Under the pieces are notes generated by a model. That model searched no databases. It worked only from the letters and a program-made list of their open reading frames with translations, and was not told the origin of the DNA. From an uncultured Caryophanales bacterium (GTDB lineage: Bacteria; Bacillota_I; Bacilli_A; RFN20; CAG-826), in NCBI GenBank assembly GCA_946409515.1, contig CAMJWS010000001.1:251557-315556 (forward strand): a DNA stretch of 64,000 nt, in the 5' to 3' direction. Shown here in pieces: positions 53,441-62,963 of the stretch. The position numbers were made by a program, and so were the translations under genes. Position 1 is the first letter of the stretch, and the number at the start of each line of letters is the position of its first letter.

Positions 53441-54406
53441 TTAACTATCTAAAGTGACAAACCAAGGTCTAGGTTTTTTTGCATTGGTGTTATCAAAATC
53501 ATACACAAGAATTGGCTTCATTTCATTTGTGCGTATTGATCGACCAATCGAGAGGCAAAGAGATGAGGAGCCACAAATCATCAAATGTATTTTAGAATAA
53601 TCTTTAGAACATTCTCTTAGCGTTTCGCTAACTGTGCTTGTAAGAGCATTGAGTTTGTTGATGGTGTTTATTGATGATCTCCCTAAACAATTAGTGCTAA
53701 CGCTTATACAATCTAGTCTTTGTAAATTTTCTGGCATTGAATTGTAATTAAAGTTAGTAGACGATTCAACACAAACAACAACCTCGTTTGTTTTGCTTTC
53801 CTCGCATTTAAGTATCTTTTTTACTACTTTAAAGTGACTAAATTTATGGAACGATGAAAAGCGCAGTTTTTTAACTTTTGAACTATTTCCTTTTATGAAA
53901 TTGTGGAAATAAACAACCTTATTGCATTGATTCAAAATAGTGCCAAGCTGTACAATATATGGAATATAATCAGCCCCAAGATATTTAATTTTCTTGATGC
54001 GTTCAATATTATTGATTGCAAATCGCATTTCAATTACCTTTTGTAGAATATCCTTGCTGTCTTCGCTATGTTTATTTCTCTTTACAGAACTGCCCATATC
54101 TTCTGTAACTGCAATATCGATTTTTGCTAAAACTGGAAAATCCATTTTGCGACCAGCACCTATAACATTTTCTGAAATCTGCCTTATAGCAACTGTTTTT
54201 CTAAACAATTTCCACACTCTAAAAGCTATCAAGGAGGTTGTGACGGCAATGATAATGATTCCAATTAAAATGAACAAATAGTGAGGAATTATCTTATATA
54301 GTTCCTCAAAATTTATGTTCGTGTTAAACAATGGTAAAAGATTTGGAGCAAATACTATTACAAAGCCTAACGCAAGTAAGATAATCAATGATAAAACATC
54401 CATCAT
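53441..54406 (-). CDS. CBASS effector: two-helix SAVED protein (Cap14-like)
   Basis: A 321-residue protein. Two membrane helices (about 4-24 and 42-66) are followed by a SAVED domain (about 90-321) whose C-terminal segment KIHLMICGSSSLCLSIG then ILVYDFDN is the usual cyclic-oligonucleotide-binding core. Membrane-anchored SAVED proteins are CBASS effectors that oligomerise and open the membrane when their signal molecule binds. Its ATG overlaps the E2-like stop (ATGA), with AGGAGG before it. Last gene of the five-gene operon. Confidence 0.82.
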   Translation of the reverse strand: MMDVLSLIILLALGFVIVFAPNLLPLFNTNINFEELYKIIPHYLFILIGIIIIAVTTSLIAFRVWKLFRKTVAIRQISENVIGAGRKMDFPVLAKIDIAVTEDMGSSVKRNKHSEDSKDILQKVIEMRFAINNIERIKKIKYLGADYIPYIVQLGTILNQCNKVVYFHNFIKGNSSKVKKLRFSSFHKFSHFKVVKKILKCEESKTNEVVVCVESSTNFNYNSMPENLQRLDCISVSTNCLGRSSINTINKLNALTSTVSETLRECSKDYSKIHLMICGSSSLCLSIGRSIRTNEMKPILVYDFDNTNAKKPRPWFVTLDS

Positions 54407-54825
54407 TCATTTGTCCTCCTCTTAAAACTATGCCCTCCTCCACACCATTTACCTGTAATTTTCCAAACTTCATAATAATACAGCCATTCAGAAATCCAAG
54501 GTACAACAACAGAATAATCATCAGAACTATCTATTTCCTTTGGCAAGTATAAGCATATCCTGCCATCTTTTAGCGAATACATATGTGGAACGTTTTTATT
54601 CTCTTTATTTTCTTTGGCTAAATTAGGTTTTAAAACTAATACATCTAGTTTTTTACTACCAGTTAATTTAATCTGTGCTAGATATGTTCTAGATTGCTCT
54701 GTAGGTTTAATCCTCAAATTAACAAATAGCGGTTGTTTAAAAGAATGAGATTCGACCAAATCAGGAAATTTACTAACAATTCTAAATATTTGTAGAGATG
54801 GATTATTCCCTTTATTCTTTATCAT
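54403..54825 (-). CDS. Standalone CBASS E2-like protein
   Basis: A 140-residue protein. The E2-CBASS pattern is clear near the C terminus: HMYSLKDGRICLYLP with Cys91 as the likely thioester Cys, then VVPWISEWLYYYEVW and GKWCGGGHSF. In CBASS with E2 but no E1, such proteins act on the CD-NTase C terminus. No E1 or deconjugase gene is present here. It overlaps the CD-NTase gene by 14 bp; upstream in-frame starts were rejected because they lie deep inside that gene. Confidence 0.8.
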   Translation of the reverse strand: MIKNKGNNPSLQIFRIVSKFPDLVESHSFKQPLFVNLRIKPTEQSRTYLAQIKLTGSKKLDVLVLKPNLAKENKENKNVPHMYSLKDGRICLYLPKEIDSSDDYSVVVPWISEWLYYYEVWKITGKWCGGGHSFKRRTNE

Positions 54826-55957
54826 ATTTTCTACCAAAGAAAGTGTGTGCTGTAACAGCAACACCGGCAACTGAATTTAGCATTCCAGTCTTTTTGTCCA
54901 TTTTCAGTTTGCCTGCTTCGCGTTCGCTCTTTGCTAATTCGCCAAAATATTTGTAGACATTTTCAACGTTTTCCTTACCAAAAATTGCTTTAGCCTTATT
55001 TGCAAAGCCAATAGTATCCAATGTATTTAGTTCTTTAACATCCTTAATCAATTGCGCATGCCATTGAAAAAAATAATGTGGCTTGAGAGCATCGTTATTC
55101 CACTTATCAGCAAAATTTTCTTTGGTGTTGACTGGGTTTATTATTGCATATTTGCCATTATTGTCCGTTGAGACATACTTATTCATACTATTTACAACGT
55201 TTAACAGGCCAACGATTAAATCTGTCTCACCAAAGTATGCTCTTGCAGCAAGGGTAGTAATAATAATAGAAATTGGTTTGTATTTTTCAGCTGAACTACC
55301 AAGACTTCCAAAATACACATCCCTATGTCTCTTGATTAATTGAACAATTTTTTGAAGAGTAGTCTTTCTAGGATATTCTTTTATTTTTTCCAAAGAGAAT
55401 AATCTCTTACTTTCTTTCATAAAAGAATTACTCTTGTCCAAAAACCAAGCAAGATAACCTTTTGGATTTGTATAGATCTCAGTGAAATTAAAGCCATCGT
55501 CAGTGTGGGTCGCAATGACAGAATCAATTTCTTTATATGTCGCTGGATTCAAATCCGGTTTGCATGGAAGAATATCCATATGATAGTCTTTGTAATTCAA
55601 AGTCCAGCACCTTTTCCCACCGTTCGGTAACTTTTCGATTTTGTTCTTATATCTATCACTATTCTTAAGGGCGTTGCCTATGATGTGTTTTAATGTTCTT
55701 AAATCAATACTACTATTTTTCAAAAAAGCAACCATATCAACATCATAATCAGATTTAGAAAGTGGTTTAACTGTGGTGCCTAAAGCGATAGAGCCTTGAG
55801 GAAAAACACTTATATCGCCATATTGCGTTATATTCTTATCGTTATTCAAAAGTGCTCCCACCGCTTCATATGATGTGATGACACTATCGAGTTCCGTATC
55901 GTTTAGATTCAAATCGTTAGCAACTTTTTCAAGCACATTATTCTTGTTTAATTCCAT
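54812..55957 (-). CDS. CBASS CD-NTase (cGAS/DncV-like nucleotidyltransferase)
   Basis: A 381-residue cyclic-oligonucleotide synthase. The pol-beta core is complete: GS loop in PQGSIALGTTVKP (Gly55-Ser56), metal residues Asp72 and Asp74 in DYDVDMVAFL, and third Asp128 in YHMDILP. An all-helical C-terminal half follows. It should make the second messenger read by the SAVED effector. The C terminus ends GRKYDKE and not in Gly, so E2 attachment of a C-terminal Gly would need trimming. Preceded by AAGGAGG, 15 bp after the TOPRIM gene. Confidence 0.88.
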   Translation of the reverse strand: MELNKNNVLEKVANDLNLNDTELDSVITSYEAVGALLNNDKNITQYGDISVFPQGSIALGTTVKPLSKSDYDVDMVAFLKNSSIDLRTLKHIIGNALKNSDRYKNKIEKLPNGGKRCWTLNYKDYHMDILPCKPDLNPATYKEIDSVIATHTDDGFNFTEIYTNPKGYLAWFLDKSNSFMKESKRLFSLEKIKEYPRKTTLQKIVQLIKRHRDVYFGSLGSSAEKYKPISIIITTLAARAYFGETDLIVGLLNVVNSMNKYVSTDNNGKYAIINPVNTKENFADKWNNDALKPHYFFQWHAQLIKDVKELNTLDTIGFANKAKAIFGKENVENVYKYFGELAKSEREAGKLKMDKKTGMLNSVAGVAVTAHTFFGRKYDKE

Positions 55958-55972: not shown

Positions 55973-56497
55973 TTATTTTTTGATAGTCAAATGTCTAAAG
56001 CCTTGAGCAAAAGATGAGAATGGTTCGCTCGGAATTCTACTCCACATTTTATTTATTTGAAATCCGACACTTTTTAATTTTGGAACTATATCCCTATGTT
56101 TGATGAATTTCTTTTTGAACTCTTCCCTTCCTTTTGTCCCTAATAATTCGCCTATGTTCACCAAACGCTCGCAGGCGAATACTAATTCATCTTCTAAGGA
56201 AGATACAGATTGAACGAAGATAATATCCTCTTCATTAAGCGAAGAATTGTTCATGATAGTTTCAATGTTATCCTCTAAAAGATCGATTTTCTTAATGTCT
56301 GTATCAAAGACAAAAACTACTTTTGTACCCTTTTTAATTGTCCTTGCTTTGGTTGGGCTAATTTTTTGATAAAGTACATTTAGTATTTCAATTTTACCTG
56401 GGCAAATACCATAGGAGGCATCTTCTGCATGCATTAAGGCCTTGAGCAAGACCATTTCACATTCCCCTTCCACAAAATAATGATATAAGCCCGCCAT
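55973..56497 (-). CDS. Small TOPRIM-like protein paired with the ATPase
   Basis: A 174-residue protein. FVEGECE (Glu10) and VFVFDTDI (Asp65, Asp67) match the TOPRIM metal site of OLD-, RloB- and AriB-type nucleases; SLEDELVFACERL could supply the third acidic position. It starts 3 bp after the ATPase stop. ATPase plus TOPRIM partners form known abortive defence systems (PARIS AriA/AriB, RloA/RloB, split OLD), but this one is shorter than AriB and I cannot choose among them. Confidence 0.68.
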   Translation of the reverse strand: MAGLYHYFVEGECEMVLLKALMHAEDASYGICPGKIEILNVLYQKISPTKARTIKKGTKVVFVFDTDIKKIDLLEDNIETIMNNSSLNEEDIIFVQSVSSLEDELVFACERLVNIGELLGTKGREEFKKKFIKHRDIVPKLKSVGFQINKMWSRIPSEPFSSFAQGFRHLTIKK

Positions 56498-56500
56498 AGA

Positions 56501-57619
56501 TTATTTGTCCCCTAATTCTAAGATTAAATTGGTACTTGGAGCGACATCAAAAAAGTCATTATCATATAGATTTTTAATATTGACATTATTTCTTTTTTCT
56601 AACGTACCAGCATTAATCATTTGAATGTTTATATTGCCTTCTTCATCGCTTACTTTTTTCAAAAAGTTATAAGAGTGATTTGGGAATGGCAATGATAAAA
56701 TCTCTGTATCGTGTGTAGTGAAGAACAACTGTTCCCCATCGTCCAATAAGTTAACCATTGTGGCTAAGCATGCAATTTCTAAGTCATGACTGACGTATGA
56801 AAATTGTTCATCAACAAAATAGAAGCCGTTCTTATGCTTTTTAATGGCGTAGATAATGCCAGCTATATTGACAGCATATTTGCTGCCTGAAGATAGCATT
56901 TTTATTTCGCTTAACTTATCACCGTGTGTAATAGGAATCGATTTTAAACCATTTTTAAAGCTAACAATATAAGAATTGTCGATTTCTTTAGAAGGAGTAA
57001 CAGATAAAACTGAGTCATCAAAGGTTTTTAAAACTCTTTCTAAAACGTTTGAAAACTCCTTGCGTTCATTTTTCTCATACGCGCAGGAAATAACATCAAA
57101 GCCAGATTCAATAGAAGGGAATAGAAAATTCCACCCGCTAGTGATTACATGCTCTAAGACTTTGATATAGTTTTCAAAGCCTTTATCACTGTCATCTAAT
57201 CTATCAACAACAGTTTCATATGAATCGTTACCATTCAAAAATTTTTCTTGGTATTTGACCAACACTTCGTTAGTCGGAGAAACTATTTTGATTTCTAGTC
57301 TAAAAAATAAACCCTCAGGATAAACACAATCCATCAAGACATATGCACTTTTATTGGCGTTTGATACCATATCAATTATGGTTTTGGCCTCTTTGTTTAA
57401 AAGGAATAAAAAAACTTTCCAAATAGCTTTGCCAAGTGATGTTTTGCCAGAAGCGTTAGAACCAACTATAACGTTCAGCTTGCGATATCTAATGTTTGGA
57501 AAATTGTTAAGATATTCACTATCCAGCGTTGGTTTGACTAATTTTTTTGGATAAGAAAAATCTGCTTCAAAATTGTTAAAGCATAGAATGTTATCAAATT
57601 TTACTTTCAAAACAGCCAT
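56501..57619 (-). CDS. ABC/SMC-type defence ATPase (AAA_15/21-like), first gene of the CBASS operon
   Basis: A 372-residue ATPase. Walker A GSNASGKTS (residues 53-61), an ABC-like signature LSSGSKYAV, Walker B with DE in YFVDEQFS, and the H-loop FFTTHDTEIL are ordered as in OLD/RloA/AriA proteins. It probably senses phage or damage and drives its TOPRIM partner. The ATG at 57619 has GGAG 7 nt upstream; an in-frame ATG four codons earlier has none. Gap to the TOPRIM gene is 3 bp. Confidence 0.82.
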   Translation of the reverse strand: MAVLKVKFDNILCFNNFEADFSYPKKLVKPTLDSEYLNNFPNIRYRKLNVIVGSNASGKTSLGKAIWKVFLFLLNKEAKTIIDMVSNANKSAYVLMDCVYPEGLFFRLEIKIVSPTNEVLVKYQEKFLNGNDSYETVVDRLDDSDKGFENYIKVLEHVITSGWNFLFPSIESGFDVISCAYEKNERKEFSNVLERVLKTFDDSVLSVTPSKEIDNSYIVSFKNGLKSIPITHGDKLSEIKMLSSGSKYAVNIAGIIYAIKKHKNGFYFVDEQFSYVSHDLEIACLATMVNLLDDGEQLFFTTHDTEILSLPFPNHSYNFLKKVSDEEGNINIQMINAGTLEKRNNVNIKNLYDNDFFDVAPSTNLILELGDK

Positions 57620-57634
57620 ATATATCTCCATTTA

Positions 57635-57834: not shown

Positions 57835-59781
57835 CTATTGTTTTGTGTATGGTAGCTCTTTTTTAAATTTTCTCAAATAGATTGATTGCAATTTGGAAAA
57901 AGATTGAAAAGAAATCAATTTGACATAGTTGATAATTCCGATTACTTTTTCTTCGTTTTTTTCTAAATCTTTCTCATATCTAGCTATAGTTTCTACATAC
58001 TCTTCAAGATACTTTTTGCTGATTGTAAGAATAGAACCATCCTTTTTGTAAACGATGTTAATACCGACATAGTGAATCGAGTCTCCCTCATTATTGAATC
58101 TAACAACGGCCTTCTTTTTCTGATTGACCGTTAAGCCTTTTTCCAGCAAAAGAGAAATTAGCTTTTCCAGCTCATTATCAAATGAATGCTTTGAAGATCT
58201 GTTGGATATTAATATGTCATCAGCGTACCTCGTGTAGACATCATTTTTACAATATTTTGAAAATTCAAAATCTAGAGAATTCATATAAATATCAGACAAT
58301 ATTGGAGACGTTACAAGGCCTAACGGAAGGTGCGAAGAATAAGCACATATGTCTATAAAAGGCTTTAGGTAAATTGAATGCGTTCTTAAAGAAATGTTCT
58401 TTATAGCTTTTGCTTTCAATTCTTTGTTAATTCGTTCTCTCAAAGCAACCACTAATTTTCCTTTATTAATCGAATTAAAGAATGAATGGATATCTAGTTT
58501 AATAAAACTCTTACTATTAATGTGCTTTAATATGCAATCTTTGATTGATGTGTCGTTTTTATAAGCAAACGAACATTCATGTGGTGGGAAGAAATAATAT
58601 AGTCTACTCGCCATTTGTTCGTGCATTTTCCTTAGTTCCCTGCCGTTTCGATTGTTCTTATAAGTAATAATTTGCCTTTTCTTTCCAGAAGTAACAATGA
58701 TTCTTTTCTCTAGAAAATCGTTTCTGTTTTTATAAAATCTCTTGATGATGCTCAGTTGATAGTTCTTGATAGAAAACAACTGATCAGTAACGTTAATTTG
58801 TCTAAGGCTTTTAAAGTCTGGGCGATATAGTCTCCCAGTTCTAATATTCTTATCTCCTTCAGATATAGAAATCTTATATAAAATACAGATAATGTGCTTG
58901 AACACTAGTTCTGCATCCATACCATCATTTCCGAAAAATAGATTGCACTTTGGTCTCTTTAAAATGAACTCGATAGAATCAGGACAATGTGGACTTGTGA
59001 TGTACAAATCAACGATATTGTTTTTAAAACGTTCAAATGCTTCCATAAAGTTCTCATGTTGCACAACATCATCAATGTATTTTTTGCTTAGAAGATTAAT
59101 TGCTAAATAGAAAGCTAATTTTATGCCAAGATAAAAATTAATTTCGTTATGCATTTTTAGAAAAGATATTTCATTAGCCTTTCTTTTGCTAGTGGCAACA
59201 AAAGGAACGATAGCTCCGTCTTTTAATCTTTCATATAGATCTTCGAAATCTTTATCAATTACTTTTTTAACTTCGTCTGGTATTACGTTGTTTTTGAAAT
59301 GAAGATATTTCTTTTCATCTTTTATAGGATAATACTCATGGATTTTACTTTTTGAGTTAGTTGAAATGCTCTTCTTGACATATTCTCCTACATAGTTATT
59401 TTCATATTTTTTTCTGTCTTCCAAGAACACATTTATTTGATTATCCGCTCTAAATGTGTCAAACAATCCCAATTCATAGCTTGTTGACATTGTATCCAAG
59501 AATATATAAGTGCGGTAAGCAACTTCCGCCACTATTTCTTCCATAGTTTTTAAACTCAACGAGTATCCATTAATAAAATCATCATCAAAAATATTGTCAA
59601 CAATAATTGGCACAAGACGGAAAACGTTTCTCTCTCTTTTTCTAGTTCCCTTTGGACTTTTATCTTTAATGTAATCAGCTGTAAGCTTTCTTCTGTCAAA
59701 TGGATTGTCTTTATCAAAGGCCGGTCCACATAGGAAAACTAAAGGTCTATTAATAATGAGTTTATTCTCTTTATTGTTCAT
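57835..59781 (-). CDS. Nucleoside-deoxyribosyltransferase-like domain fused to a reverse transcriptase (retron-type)
   Basis: A 648-residue fusion. Residues about 12-125 have a nucleoside-deoxyribosyltransferase-like fold: PLVFLCGPAFD at the front and STSYELGLFD (Glu103 as likely catalytic residue) before a VFLED strand. About 150-340 is helical and unknown. About 370-600 is a reverse transcriptase: KLDIHSFFNSI (Asp430), LPLGLVTSPILS, TRYADDILIS (YADD 519-522) and NQKKK...YVGINI, the last in place of the retron VTG motif. The msr-msd-like RNA directly upstream makes retron the best assignment. NDT-like proteins are known retron effectors as separate genes. No Shine-Dalgarno precedes the ATG. 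Confidence 0.8.
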   Translation of the reverse strand: MNNKENKLIINRPLVFLCGPAFDKDNPFDRRKLTADYIKDKSPKGTRKRERNVFRLVPIIVDNIFDDDFINGYSLSLKTMEEIVAEVAYRTYIFLDTMSTSYELGLFDTFRADNQINVFLEDRKKYENNYVGEYVKKSISTNSKSKIHEYYPIKDEKKYLHFKNNVIPDEVKKVIDKDFEDLYERLKDGAIVPFVATSKRKANEISFLKMHNEINFYLGIKLAFYLAINLLSKKYIDDVVQHENFMEAFERFKNNIVDLYITSPHCPDSIEFILKRPKCNLFFGNDGMDAELVFKHIICILYKISISEGDKNIRTGRLYRPDFKSLRQINVTDQLFSIKNYQLSIIKRFYKNRNDFLEKRIIVTSGKKRQIITYKNNRNGRELRKMHEQMASRLYYFFPPHECSFAYKNDTSIKDCILKHINSKSFIKLDIHSFFNSINKGKLVVALRERINKELKAKAIKNISLRTHSIYLKPFIDICAYSSHLPLGLVTSPILSDIYMNSLDFEFSKYCKNDVYTRYADDILISNRSSKHSFDNELEKLISLLLEKGLTVNQKKKAVVRFNNEGDSIHYVGINIVYKKDGSILTISKKYLEEYVETIARYEKDLEKNEEKVIGIINYVKLISFQSFSKLQSIYLRKFKKELPYTKQ

Positions 59782-59790
59782 AAAACAGGA

Positions 59791-60049
59791 GGGGTTACTT
59801 TTATATGTTTATTACAACGATACATACTAATCCTTAATTCGGTGAACTTAGGTAGTTCATGCCGAACATGGACATTAATAATTTATAACAAACAGATATG
59901 GATTATTGATGTCAATATTTGGAATGAAAAGTCATTTCAAAAACTAATACACAGTTTTCATATAACACAGCATTAACGCCCATATAAAACATCATTGGCC
60001 ACAAGTGGTAGTTTCCATATTATCCGTATCCACGAACTAAACTAACCCC
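59791..60049 (-). ncRNA. Retron-like msr-msd RNA
   Basis: A 259-nt leader ending 9 nt before the RT start. Its ends are inverted repeats: a1 GGGGTTA (60049-60043) and a2 TAACCCC (59797-59791); past one mismatch, three more bases pair. The base after a1 is G, as for the branching guanosine. Inside are GTTTTATAT...TATATGAAAAC (59990-59954), a 12-bp stem with one mismatch (59913-59902 with 59882-59871) and a hairpin TTCGG...CCGAA containing GAAC/GTTC (59866-59838). TATAAT ends 6 nt before a1. Lengths and order fit retron RNA. Confidence 0.7.
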
Positions 60050-60055
60050 AAAAAG

Positions 60056-60061
60056 ATTATA
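60056..60061 (-). promoter_or_regulatory. -10 box of the retron-like RNA
   Basis: TATAAT on the minus strand; the seventh base downstream is the first G of a1. The -35 region is A/T-rich and weak. Confidence 0.6.
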
Positions 60062-60170: not shown

Positions 60171-60409
60171 TCAGTCTCTTCTAAATAAATCTCTTGTATA
60201 GACTTTGTTTCGAACATCATCTAAACAACCGTCGTATCTATTAGCGATAATTGCGTTAGATAATTTCTTAAATTCTTCTAAGTTATTAACTACTTTACTA
60301 CCAAAGAATTCTGAACCATCCTCTAATGTTGGTTCATAGATAATAACTTTAACACCTTTGGCTTTCTTTTTGGCGAGTGTTGCCCACATAGTAGCAATGC
60401 GAGCCACCC
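60171..60409 (-). pseudogene. ugd remnant 1: 3' end of UDP-glucose 6-dehydrogenase
   Basis: The 78 codons preserve the very C terminus of a UDP-glucose/nucleotide-sugar dehydrogenase: [24 protein letters not shown] and the end [11 protein letters not shown] whole Ugd has about 390-430 residues, so the 5' 80% is gone. Reading frame still open. It is followed by a strong terminator, which was probably that of the original gene cluster. Remnant 2 at 60986-61222 has the same endpoints. Confidence 0.82.
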
Positions 60410-60425
60410 ATTGTTTTAAAAATAA

Positions 60426-60983
60426 CTACTTATTCTCTGATGTATCTTGATAGTCTTTTTGGTAATTATCATATATTTCATCCCAAGAGGAATGCTTGTT
60501 ATTATTCTTCATCTTACCAACTGTTTCTAATTTAATACGTTTCCATTCTGTTTGAACGTATAAATCCATTTCTTTTATGAATTCTTTTCTTTTAGAAATA
60601 AGTTTTTCTTTATTAGTATCTTTACTAGAATTCATATAAGAAATAACACTATCTTTTAAAGATTCAGTAATATTAATTAAATCTCTATCACATTCAAAAA
60701 TTTGAGAATACTCAGATCTAATATCCGCGGTTACTTCCACTAATTCCTTCACAGTGGCTTTCTTATCTTCTTTATCTAAAGAATCAAGATATTCAATGCT
60801 AGATAGCTTAATCATCTTAGCCATAAGCGTCTTGGTCTTTTCTCTTCTACTCAATCTGGTCTTAGTAATAACACTAATGGAATTACTCTTTCTTTGAACA
60901 AAGGAATTAATAATAAAACCAATGACACCTAATAATAAGGTTACACATACTGCGATTAGAGAAATAACATCTTTCCATTCCAT
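60426..60983 (-). CDS. Single-helix membrane protein of unknown function
   Basis: A 185-residue protein. One N-terminal membrane helix (about 7-28) then a strongly charged helical, coiled-coil-like domain. No family recognised. It is flanked on both sides by copies of the same ugd 3' end and was probably brought in as a cassette. No convincing ribosome-binding site. Confidence 0.55.
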   Translation of the reverse strand: MEWKDVISLIAVCVTLLLGVIGFIINSFVQRKSNSISVITKTRLSRREKTKTLMAKMIKLSSIEYLDSLDKEDKKATVKELVEVTADIRSEYSQIFECDRDLINITESLKDSVISYMNSSKDTNKEKLISKRKEFIKEMDLYVQTEWKRIKLETVGKMKNNNKHSSWDEIYDNYQKDYQDTSENK

Positions 60984-60985
60984 AA

Positions 60986-61222
60986 CTAGTCTCTTCTAAA
61001 CAAATCTCTTGTATATACTTTGTTTTGAATATCATCTAAGCATCTATCGTTTCTATTAGCGAAATTGCGTTGGATAATCTCTTAAACTCTTCTAAGTTAT
61101 TAATTACTTTGCTGCCAAAGAATTCAGAACCATCTTCTAATGTTGATTCGTAGACAATAACTTTAACACCTTTGCTTTCTTTTCGGCGAGTGTTGCGCAC
61201 ACAGTAACAATGCGAGCCACCT
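60986..61222 (-). pseudogene. ugd remnant 2: degenerate second copy
   Basis: About 237 bp aligned along its whole length with remnant 1, from the terminal RRD-stop codons to the GGTGGCTCGC boundary. It carries single-base deletions (near 61066 and 61173), so the frame is broken. The 5' limit is the same in both copies, showing a shared breakpoint. Lies between the 185-residue gene and the phosphonate genes. Confidence 0.8.
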
Positions 61223-61223
61223 A

Positions 61224-62963
61224 TTATTTATTAATGCTACCATAGCATTTCCTTATATTAATTTTAAACGGAAAATTTTTAAGTCTTATAGGATTGACTG
61301 ACTCAATTAACTCGTTAATATCATTTTTTAAAAAAGATACATTCTTGCTTAATTCAAAATAATCGATGATTTCATTAAAAACTTTCTTTACATCCAAATC
61401 ACTGCCGAATTGAGTTTTGACTTTGCAATTTTCAAAAATCGAATTCATGCAAATAGCAACAGCATGTCCATGCGGAATACCATACAGGGATGTAATTTTA
61501 TAGCTCATAGCATGGGCTGCGGTTGTTTCAGAAATATTGATAGCTTTCCCAGAGTAATTAGCAGCCAATTGAATGTTCTTAATAGCATGTATATCACATT
61601 CCAGATAACCTTTGTAATTGTCTTCGAAGAGCTTTAAACCTTTAATTGCGTATTTTCTGCTAACAGGCGTAGCTTTTCTAGACCATAATGATTCAATACA
61701 CTGGCACAAAGCGTCCATCGCTGTACATTTCTTTTGATATTTGGGAACGCTAATAATAAGTTTTGGGCAAAGAATGACATAATCCGGAACATTGACAGGA
61801 TTAGCTATTGATTGTTTCTCGCCGTTTAAATATAACACAGCATGCTTAGTGGATTCACTACCAGTGCCACTTGTACTAGGTATACAAATATGTTTGATAT
61901 CGGAGTATTTGTAATTTTGTTTGAATGTTGGGGTATCGCTTTTTAAGTCGGCATTTAAAGAGAGTCTAATTACTTTGGCAACATCAATACAAGATCCACC
62001 ACCAATGGACACAATTGCATCACACTTGTTATCCTTGAATGATTTGAGACCATTCAACATTTCTTCATATTTCGGATTAGATGTGAATCCAGAAAACACA
62101 ACTGCATTTGGTAATTTCTTTTGAATATTCTTTGCCAAAAAAATATCAGCAACAATAAATGGTTTTATTGAGTTTAACTTGCTTAATTGAGTTTTCAGTG
62201 GAAAAAAATATTTAGAGGATGTTTTGATCTTCTGAGTTTTATAATCCCATTGTTCTATTTCTTTATTAACTCTAGCTAAATCATCTTTGTTATCTACTTC
62301 GTCAATAAAATGATTAGCATAACTGACTGGTCTAATCCTCAGCCCTTCGCTAACTTCGTTAAAGGCATTTTCTGCATAGACATTAAGGTTATTATTTTCA
62401 ACAAACCTTACAACATTATCTAGCCATACTTTAATAACTTCTTTTGATAATTTATAAAGTGGCTGGAAAGCAAAACAATCTTTGTCAAAGATGTTGATGC
62501 CTACTTCTCTAAGCTCATTATCCACTATTCTTCCTTTAAAATCCTTTTCAGGAAGAGATTTATATTTATTAATCAAGCAAGTGTTTGATTCTCTATTTTT
62601 TAACAATGATGGTATAAGTTTTCTATCAAAAACCAAATCACCATGCATCATTAAGATATCGTCATTTAAATATTCTCTTGCTTTGTACATAGAGTAAATA
62701 TAGTTCGATGCATCATATATCTCATTATGAGGAAATACAAAATGCATATTTCTATAGCAAGGCTTAGCACAAATGTCTTTTAGCATTTCAGGATATGGAC
62801 CAGTTGTAATAACGACTTCTGTAATACCAGCTTCTTGGAGAAGTCTTATTTGACGCTCAAAGATGGTCTCATCATTGTATAGATGGACCATGCTTTTAGG
62901 ACAATGGGCAGTTAACTCACCCATTCTTTTTCCAATGCCAGAATTAAATATAAGAGCTTTCAT
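61224..62963 (-). CDS. Nucleotidyltransferase fused to iron-dependent alcohol dehydrogenase (phosphonate pathway)
   Basis: A 579-residue fusion. Residues 1-235 are a LicC/IspD-like nucleotidyltransferase ([16 protein letters not shown], then HGDLVFD). Residues about 250-579 are an Fe-ADH ([47 protein letters not shown]). The gene starts 2 bp after phosphonopyruvate decarboxylase, so the dehydrogenase probably reduces phosphonoacetaldehyde to 2-hydroxyethylphosphonate and the transferase activates a phosphonate with CTP. The reaction is inferred from context. Confidence 0.82.

What the first reader, a model, noticed from the sequence alone, without database searches (positions are those of the whole stretch)
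57835..60061. Retron-like unit with effector and reverse transcriptase in one polypeptide
A single 648-residue protein joins a nucleoside-deoxyribosyltransferase-like domain to a reverse transcriptase with an intact YADD. Its leader has matched a1/a2 repeats (GGGGTTA/TAACCCC), a G right after a1, at least three hairpins and a -10 box that would start transcription at a1 base 1. NDT-like effectors are known in retrons as separate proteins (retron-Eco1 type); a fused form with a variant VTG region (VGINI) would be a less usual or new architecture. A helical domain of about 190 residues lies between.
Basis: partly seen in the sequence, partly recalled or inferred. Interest (0 to 1): 0.9.

Follow-up and report, generated by a model that had tools for sequence, protein, structure and literature searches.

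The report
Retron with effector and transcriptase fused
A bacterial DNA-making immune unit, a retron, seems here to carry its killing enzyme and its reverse transcriptase in one protein with its template RNA just upstream; intact fused relatives turned up in four other genomes, which makes it a credible but untested new layout of a known kind of phage defence.

Summary
Window 57835-59781(-) encodes one 648-residue protein. Its N-terminus is a relative of the Ec86/St85 retron effector (NDT-like): an HMM of seven separate effectors finds it at E=1e-9; the same seven match the solved Ec86 effector at 7.6e-30. Its C-terminus is a reverse transcriptase whose best matches are retron RTs.

Fused genes occur in four other genomes and, split by a frame change, in a fifth. 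The leader layout (a1 ending TA or CA, then G; G before a2) is found in 16 of 17 related leaders and 2 of 153 controls, and a1/a2 covary. The rule was made after looking; 6 of 13 held-out two-gene loci meet it.

Against strict type II-A membership: effector and RT are not separate genes, and NAxxH and VTG are replaced. Whether the RT belongs to the II-A clade is undecided. No paper found names an NDT-RT fusion, but the main classification paper was not held.

Likely mechanism, inferred: msDNA made by the RT restrains the NDT domain in cis; infection releases it to consume NAD+ or a nucleotide. New variant of a known kind.

The parts
57835..59781 (-). NDT-like/RT fusion gene, 648 aa
59239..59769 (-). 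N-terminal NDT-like effector domain (residues about 5-181)
   Evidence: HMM of seven separate St85/Ec86-type effectors, E=1e-9, residues 5-181; hhalign of fused against separate effectors 97.9%, E 3.3e-13, over 102 columns
59473..59475 (-). Glu103 of STSYELGLF, in the place of the NDT nucleophile (that role is recalled, from no call)
   Evidence: invariant in the 5 fused N-termini aligned; the matching Glu is invariant in 7 separate effectors
58792..59214 (-). linker (residues about 190-330), helices predicted, low confidence
   Evidence: AlphaFold2 model, pLDDT under 50 at 193-217, 255-287, 310-330
57856..58791 (-). reverse transcriptase domain (residues about 331-642)
   Evidence: PF00078 6.7e-24; RT_II-A 4.1e-32; retron RT structures head the fold search
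58216..58227 (-). YADD catalytic motif
   Evidence: residues 519-522
58054..58068 (-). VGINI in the place of VTG
   Evidence: residues 572-576
59791..60049 (-). ncRNA (msr-msd), 259 nt from a1 to a2
   Evidence: fold z -3.14; family layout
60043..60049 (-). a1 repeat GGGGTTA
60042..60042 (-). candidate branching G just after a1
   Evidence: invariant in 13 aligned loci, though it was part of the selection rule
59791..59797 (-). a2 repeat TAACCCC
59798..59798 (-). G just before a2
   Evidence: invariant in 13 of 13 aligned loci and not used to select those 13
60022..60037 (-). msr hairpin 1 (GGAU loop, also predicted in G184)
59896..60020 (-). second hairpin region
59806..59894 (-). third hairpin, probable msd template (inference)
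60056..60061 (-). TATAAT -10-like box six bases from a1
   Evidence: sequence; not reported by the promoter scan

Best explanation
It is a retron-type phage-defence unit in which the NDT-like toxic effector and the reverse transcriptase are one polypeptide. A transcript starting at about a1 folds into an ncRNA closed by a1/a2 (supported by comparison). The RT domain primes from the 2'-OH of the G after a1 and copies the msd hairpin into msDNA that stays bound to the RT (inferred from known retrons). The RT-msDNA complex keeps the N-terminal NDT domain, tethered in cis, inactive or in an inactive assembly (inferred). Infection that alters the msDNA or the complex frees the domain, which then hydrolyses NAD+ or a related nucleotide and stops the infected cell (inferred from Eco1). 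The layout probably arose when overlapping, already adjacent effector and RT genes became one frame (inferred).
For: N-terminus: hmmsearch with seven separate effectors finds the window protein at E=1e-9 and those of G145, G007 and G184 at 3.1e-13, 6e-12 and 1.7e-10; the best row that is neither an NDT effector nor a fused gene has E=0.44, in 1,328 ORFs read with table 11, repeats included. The same seven match the Ec86 effector of 7v9x at 7.6e-30 and 7 of 7 match NF038232. RT: best PADLOC models are RT_II-A, I-B and other retron RTs (best 25 of 47 shown), best NCBIfam model retron_St85_RT; retron RTs fill the first twelve rows of the fold comparison, Z 24.1 to 21.3, then DRT2 20.8 and group II 20.5. 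Leader: 16 of 17 leaders pass the refined layout against 2 of 153 controls; eight of nine a1/a2 pairs change on both sides, 93.2% of cells paired against 35.9-50.0% when slid; 6 of 13 held-out leaders pass. Fused genes in G007, G145, G184, G340 and, frame-split, G678. In the 20 separate NDT+RT loci for which both ends were read, the effector gene lies upstream of the RT gene and overlaps it by at least one base. The window unit lies beside CBASS and AbiL-like genes.
Against: The window's own N-terminus gives no PADLOC or Pfam hit and a profile of five fused N-termini finds no PDB chain. G340's gene did not appear, where it was read with table 11. The RT lacks NAxxH and VTG and its NCBIfam scores lie under the curated cut-offs. 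The five fused RTs are not shown to be one clade, with RT-LRR giants and L098 among them, though one clade is not rejected (p 0.438). The layout rule was made after looking at most of these loci; 7 of 13 held-out leaders fail it, two of them (L023, L036) from the window's own family, and so does L093. In one search one of five measures, further pair types, does not exceed shuffles (268 of 500 reach it). The window's ncRNA (259 nt) is longer than those of the other fused loci measured (149-209). Rows of the fold comparison that differ by under 1 in Z count as tied, so the lead over DRT2 and group II is small at the lower end. Nothing here shows msDNA, catalysis or defence.
Confidence: 0.75

Rival explanations
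1. A defence-associated RT (DRT/UG-like) fused to an NDT-like domain that does not make msDNA but other DNA; the leader is a regulatory or scaffold RNA.
For: The RT lacks NAxxH and VTG; UG17 and Drt3a models also match, at 3.1e-22 and 8.6e-21; DRT2 lies close behind retrons in the fold comparison; the gene next downstream in G184 matches PDC-S61 (1.5e-114) and, weakly, the DRT-associated model RTasPDDEXK (7.1e-14).
Against: The best retron RT model scores about ten orders of magnitude better than the best UG/DRT model; the leader has the a1/G ... G/a2 layout shared with two-gene NDT+RT loci.
Confidence: 0.12
2. A retron whose NDT-like domain is not the toxin but a structural or substrate-binding part of the RT complex, the toxin being a neighbouring gene such as an AAA ATPase.
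For: The NDT-like sequence is divergent. ATPase-type defence genes lie near 4 of 4 fused loci read with table 11: AbiLi-like 204 bases downstream in the window, AbiLi-like about 5 kb downstream in G007, an AriA/AbiLi-like gene downstream in G184, and a gene matching PDC-S46, with a P-loop-like sequence seen by eye, upstream in G145.
Against: These ATPase genes differ in family, side and distance, as in any defence island, and I saw none in the stretches read around G340 and G678, which were not scanned for families. The Glu in the NDT nucleophile position is invariant in 5 fused and 7 separate proteins.
Confidence: 0.1
3. A decayed former retron: a remnant without activity.
For: It lies next to gene fragments (two ugd 3' ends); one relative, G678, is split by a frame change.
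Against: Intact frame, intact YADD, invariant Glu103, and conservation of both domains and of the leader layout at about 30% protein identity.
Confidence: 0.03

Closest known systems
Type II-A retrons (Eco1/Ec86, St85)
   Same: NDT-like effector of the same family; effector before RT in the 20 separate loci read; ncRNA-like leader with a1/a2 upstream of both in many; best RT model RT_II-A.
   Different: Effector and RT are one protein; the RT lacks NAxxH and VTG. Eco1 is described as having a standalone NDT effector (PMC12405507, passages). Whether the RT is of the same clade is undecided.
Fused retrons: I-C RT-Toprim (Eco2), VII-A1 RT-DUF3800, XI RT-protease, XII RT-TIR
   Same: One polypeptide joins RT and effector; PADLOC marks these models as single gene.
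   Different: The effector here is NDT-like and N-terminal; in those models the matched RT stretch lies in the first half of the profile, so the effector follows it (inference).
Lachnospiraceae two-gene NDT+RT systems (L096, L097)
   Same: Nearest separate NDT relatives by RT in the 114-row tree (85/77); effectors of the St85 family; a1/a2 with TA|G ... G|TA.
   Different: Two overlapping genes; the RTs keep TG of VTG and NAxxH (L097; L096 read by eye); an extra gene of 228-229 aa upstream. In the 49-row tree their place next to the fused group is unresolved.
RT-LRR giants (L022, L089, L090, L091)
   Same: RT in the same group as the fused RTs (96/85) and same a1/a2 layout (4 of 4).
   Different: No NDT match; the RT is followed by a long LRR_5 array (two of the four scanned).

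Membership tests
Retron (broad) | RT with YxDD | tested here: met
   YADD at 519-522
Retron (broad) | ncRNA closed by a1/a2 with a G just after a1 (described in PMC8989520, passages) | tested here: met
   Window and relatives, 16 of 17 leaders against 2 of 153 controls; covariation; 6 of 13 held-out
Retron (broad) | RT closest to retron RTs rather than group II or DRT | tested here: met
   group II rows stand apart at 100/99; the join between this group, other retrons and group II is weak (72/49)
Retron (broad) | NAxxH and VTG motifs in the RT (named for Eco1 and Eco2 in PMC12405507, passage); typical rather than universal | tested here: not met
   CILKH and YVGINI; two RTs that PADLOC scores best as RT_I-B, L105 and L154, also lack VTG, so I do not take these motifs as defining
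Retron (broad) | msDNA product | not testable with these tools
   needs isolation of DNA
Type II-A retron | NDT-like effector of the Ec86/St85 family | tested here: met
Type II-A retron | RT in one clade with the other NDT-bearing RTs | tested here: inconclusive
   best HMM is RT_II-A; in the best 49-row tree 14 two-gene NDT rows stand apart from the fused RTs with support 58, and one clade of all 21 NDT-bearing rows is not rejected, AU p 0.32. The p 2.3e-6 came from a wrong grouping and is withdrawn.
Type II-A retron | effector encoded by its own gene | tested here: not met
   one 648-aa frame, also one frame in G007, G145, G184, G340
Defence-associated RT (UG/DRT) | RT closest to a UG/DRT class | tested here: not met
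   best UG/DRT models 3.1e-22 and 8.6e-21 against 4.1e-32 for RT_II-A

The most novel reading that the evidence does not exclude
A retron clade of its own, centred on Mycoplasmatota-related bacteria and branching outside the described types, in which the RT keeps its partner domain in cis: NDT-RT fusions in some members and RT fused to long LRR arrays in others, each with its own a1/a2 ncRNA.
Probability: 0.4. Interest if true: 0.65.

Novelty: new variant of a known kind. Interest (0 to 1): 0.5.

Why it matters
If active, a single gene plus a 259-nt RNA would be a complete NDT-type retron, with effector and RT fixed at 1:1. That makes it directly testable how msDNA restrains the effector, a question that in Eco1 involves separate proteins and filaments. 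It would add an NDT form to the known effector-RT fusions, and it gives a compact test object from a lineage of small genomes.

Tried and rejected
Withdrawn: I tested all NDT-bearing RTs as one clade and got p 2.3e-6, but had put at least seven other NDT-bearing loci (L106, L108, L174, L137, L140, L131, L107) among the outsiders. With the rows sorted the same test gives p 0.32, not rejected.

Window N-terminus alone against PADLOC: no hit; against Pfam the whole protein gives RVT_1 only. Profile of fused N-termini against PDB: none; the bridge over separate effectors worked. The first AlphaFold2 model, from 4 rows, was poor, mean pLDDT 42.3, and was not searched; the second (36 rows, 78.3) was. 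Its VIA comparison covers model residues 328-648 in the main, so the NDT part is untested by fold. The viral fold list held RTs, RNA polymerases and a few other or unnamed proteins and added nothing. Rfam: three matches, all far under the gathering scores. Plasmids (24 records), phages (8 records) and viral contigs (9 loci): matches within or near the RT, none with the NDT part.

The upstream genes of G184 and G007 (x) and of L096/L097 (y) were compared as one family: no support; x against x is weak, E 6e-4. Plain stem score did not single out the window's a1/a2, which is why the layout rule was used. rests on rows selected for complementarity; shuffles and slides do not remove that. Paper searches for an NDT-RT fusion showed none in their listings; Mestre et al. 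2020, the main classification paper (recalled), is not held, so absence from print is not shown. Searches for retrons with LRR or BspA: 6 of 6 papers listed and 10 of 499 listed, none on that subject by title.

Rows dropped: of 173 ORFs that matched the RT profile, 99 went into the tree under their own names and 13 under group names; 27 were left out as repeats or, for L133, as cut off, and 34 as under 59 bits; the window and G340 rows were added. 49 of the 114 rows went into the second tree. The frame-split G678 gene is in neither.

Full report
Observation. The protein at 57835-59781(-) is a single 648-residue frame. Its sequence shows RPLVFLCGP near the start, STSYELGLF around residue 103, YADD at 519-522 and VGINI at 572-576. 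The leader carries GGGGTTA at 60049-60043 and TAACCCC at 59797-59791, nine bases before the ATG. The RNA between them folds better than shuffles (z -3.14; 1 of 200 as low).

What the protein is. The C-terminal part matches RT_II-A at 4.1e-32, RT_I-B at 1e-30 and UG17 at 3.1e-22, and NCBIfam retron_St85_RT at 3.4e-35 against group II at 2.5e-19, both under the curated cut-offs. The N-terminal part has no direct family hit. Relatives give the bridge. Their N-termini hit PADLOC NDT_II-A at 2.7e-10 (G007), 1e-5 (G184) and 2.3e-4 (G145); one of the four fused proteins, not the window's, hits the St85 effector family at 9e-13. An HMM of seven separate effectors, which match the Ec86 effector at 7.6e-30, finds the window protein at 1e-9; among 1,328 ORFs the first row that is neither an effector nor a fused gene is at 0.44. 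hhalign of five fused N-termini with these seven gives 97.9% and E 3.3e-13 over 102 columns. The Glu of the ELG motif is invariant in both sets.

How common. Whole-genome searches (193, 279, 395, 392, 4 and 23 genomes, overlapping sets) gave full-length fused matches in the window genome, G007, G145 and G184. Partial hits in G340 and G678 turned out, read with code 4, to be fused too, the last in two frames. I did not inspect the other partial hits one by one for a fused N-terminus. The fusion is therefore rare but not a single-genome artefact.

Leader. A first rule (a1 of 7 pairs ending TA or CA, followed by G, a2 within 45 bases of the start) is met by 14 of 15 related leaders, 19 of 106 control leaders and 4.5-18% of shuffles. 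Aligning 13 loci that have such repeats (the G340 locus added, two giants left out as near repeats) showed a G just before a2 in 13 of 13, which had not been asked for. With that G added, 16 of 17 leaders pass, 2 of 153 controls pass and shuffles give 0.2-3.4%. The 17 are six fused, seven two-gene and four giant loci; L093 fails. The rule is post hoc. As a hold-out, 13 further two-gene NDT+RT leaders were tested once: 6 pass, 7 do not. The failures are L023 and L036, from the window's own family, one Chlorobiota locus and four of five proteobacterial ones. In the 13-row alignment eight of nine pairs change on both sides, with the reserve that rows were chosen for complementarity, and one of the five measures there does not exceed shuffles.

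Where the RT stands. In a tree of 114 RTs the five fused RTs, four RT-LRR giants and L098 form one group (96/85), with Lachnospiraceae L096/L097, which have separate NDT genes, next to it (85/77); group II intron RTs stand apart at 100/99, while the join between this group, group II and the other retrons is weak (72/49). In a second tree of 49 rows the group of ten holds (SH-aLRT 95), and its nearest relatives are an unresolved set with L096/L097 and three I-B-like RTs. One clade for the five fused RTs is not rejected (p 0.438) and not shown. One clade for all 21 NDT-bearing rows is likewise not rejected (p 0.32); an earlier test that seemed to reject it was wrongly grouped and is withdrawn (see Tried and rejected). 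So the RT may be a fast-evolving II-A relative or a clade of its own.

Structure. The second AlphaFold2 model has mean pLDDT 78.3, high over the RT, block means 67-93 over residues 11-120, and under 50 at 193-217, 255-287, 310-330 and 338-341. Retron RTs fill the first twelve rows of the VIA comparison, Z 24.1-21.3, then DRT2 at 20.8 and group II at 20.5.

Mechanism. Known retrons start reverse transcription from the 2'-OH of a conserved G next to the inverted repeats (PMC8989520, passages). Eco1 forms filaments and acts through NAD+ hydrolysis (PMC12405507, passages). By analogy the fused protein would make its own msDNA, hold its NDT domain in check in cis, and release it on infection. Only the parts list and the leader layout are supported here; priming, restraint, trigger and catalysis are inferred. 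ATPase-type defence genes lie near four of four fused loci read with table 11, in differing families and positions; I take this as defence-island company, but it keeps a rival open.

Comparison. [quoted passage not shown] PADLOC marks single-gene forms for I-C, VII-A1, XI and XII. I found no NDT-RT form in the paper searches named under Tried and rejected. Hence new variant of a known kind.

Noticed in passing
L022:6253-11475, L089:489-5768, L090:7965-13226, L091:2734-7752: Frames of 1,672-1,759 aa with an RT at the start; the two scanned (L022, L089) carry BspA-type LRR_5 repeats after it (E 1e-242 and 0). a1/a2 GGTGGTTA or AGTGGTTA with matching a2 upstream in 4 of 4. Possibly a further retron architecture.
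   Followed up: partly
60173-60416 and 60988-61229: Two direct copies, 88.5% identical, of the 3' end of a UDP-glucose dehydrogenase-like gene flank the small gene at 60426-60983; no third copy found in the window genome as held. Looks like a recombination scar at the edge of the defence genes.
   Followed up: partly
53441-55957: CBASS-like set: cyclase, E2-like and 2TM-SAVED effector genes.
   Followed up: no
55973-57631: ATPase best matching AbiLi (7e-20) with a small partner gene; G007 has an AbiLi-like gene (4.7e-26) with a small gene after it downstream of its fused gene (L021:13047-14698).
   Followed up: partly
L020:4204-4956: Gene next downstream of the fused gene in G184 matches the candidate defence model PDC-S61 (1.5e-114) and RTasPDDEXK (7.1e-14).
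   Followed up: no
L020:7396-8460 and L021:4499-5629: A gene of 354-376 aa just upstream of the ncRNA in two of the fused loci, no Pfam or PADLOC hit, weakly alike (E 6e-4).
   Followed up: partly
L096:4055-4744 and L097:1444-2130: A different gene of 228-229 aa upstream of these two-gene NDT+RT systems, clearly alike between the two (aligned), no Pfam hit for the one scanned.
   Followed up: no
L177:3619-6340: The fused gene of G678 is split into two frames; decay or an assembly error cannot be told apart.
   Followed up: no
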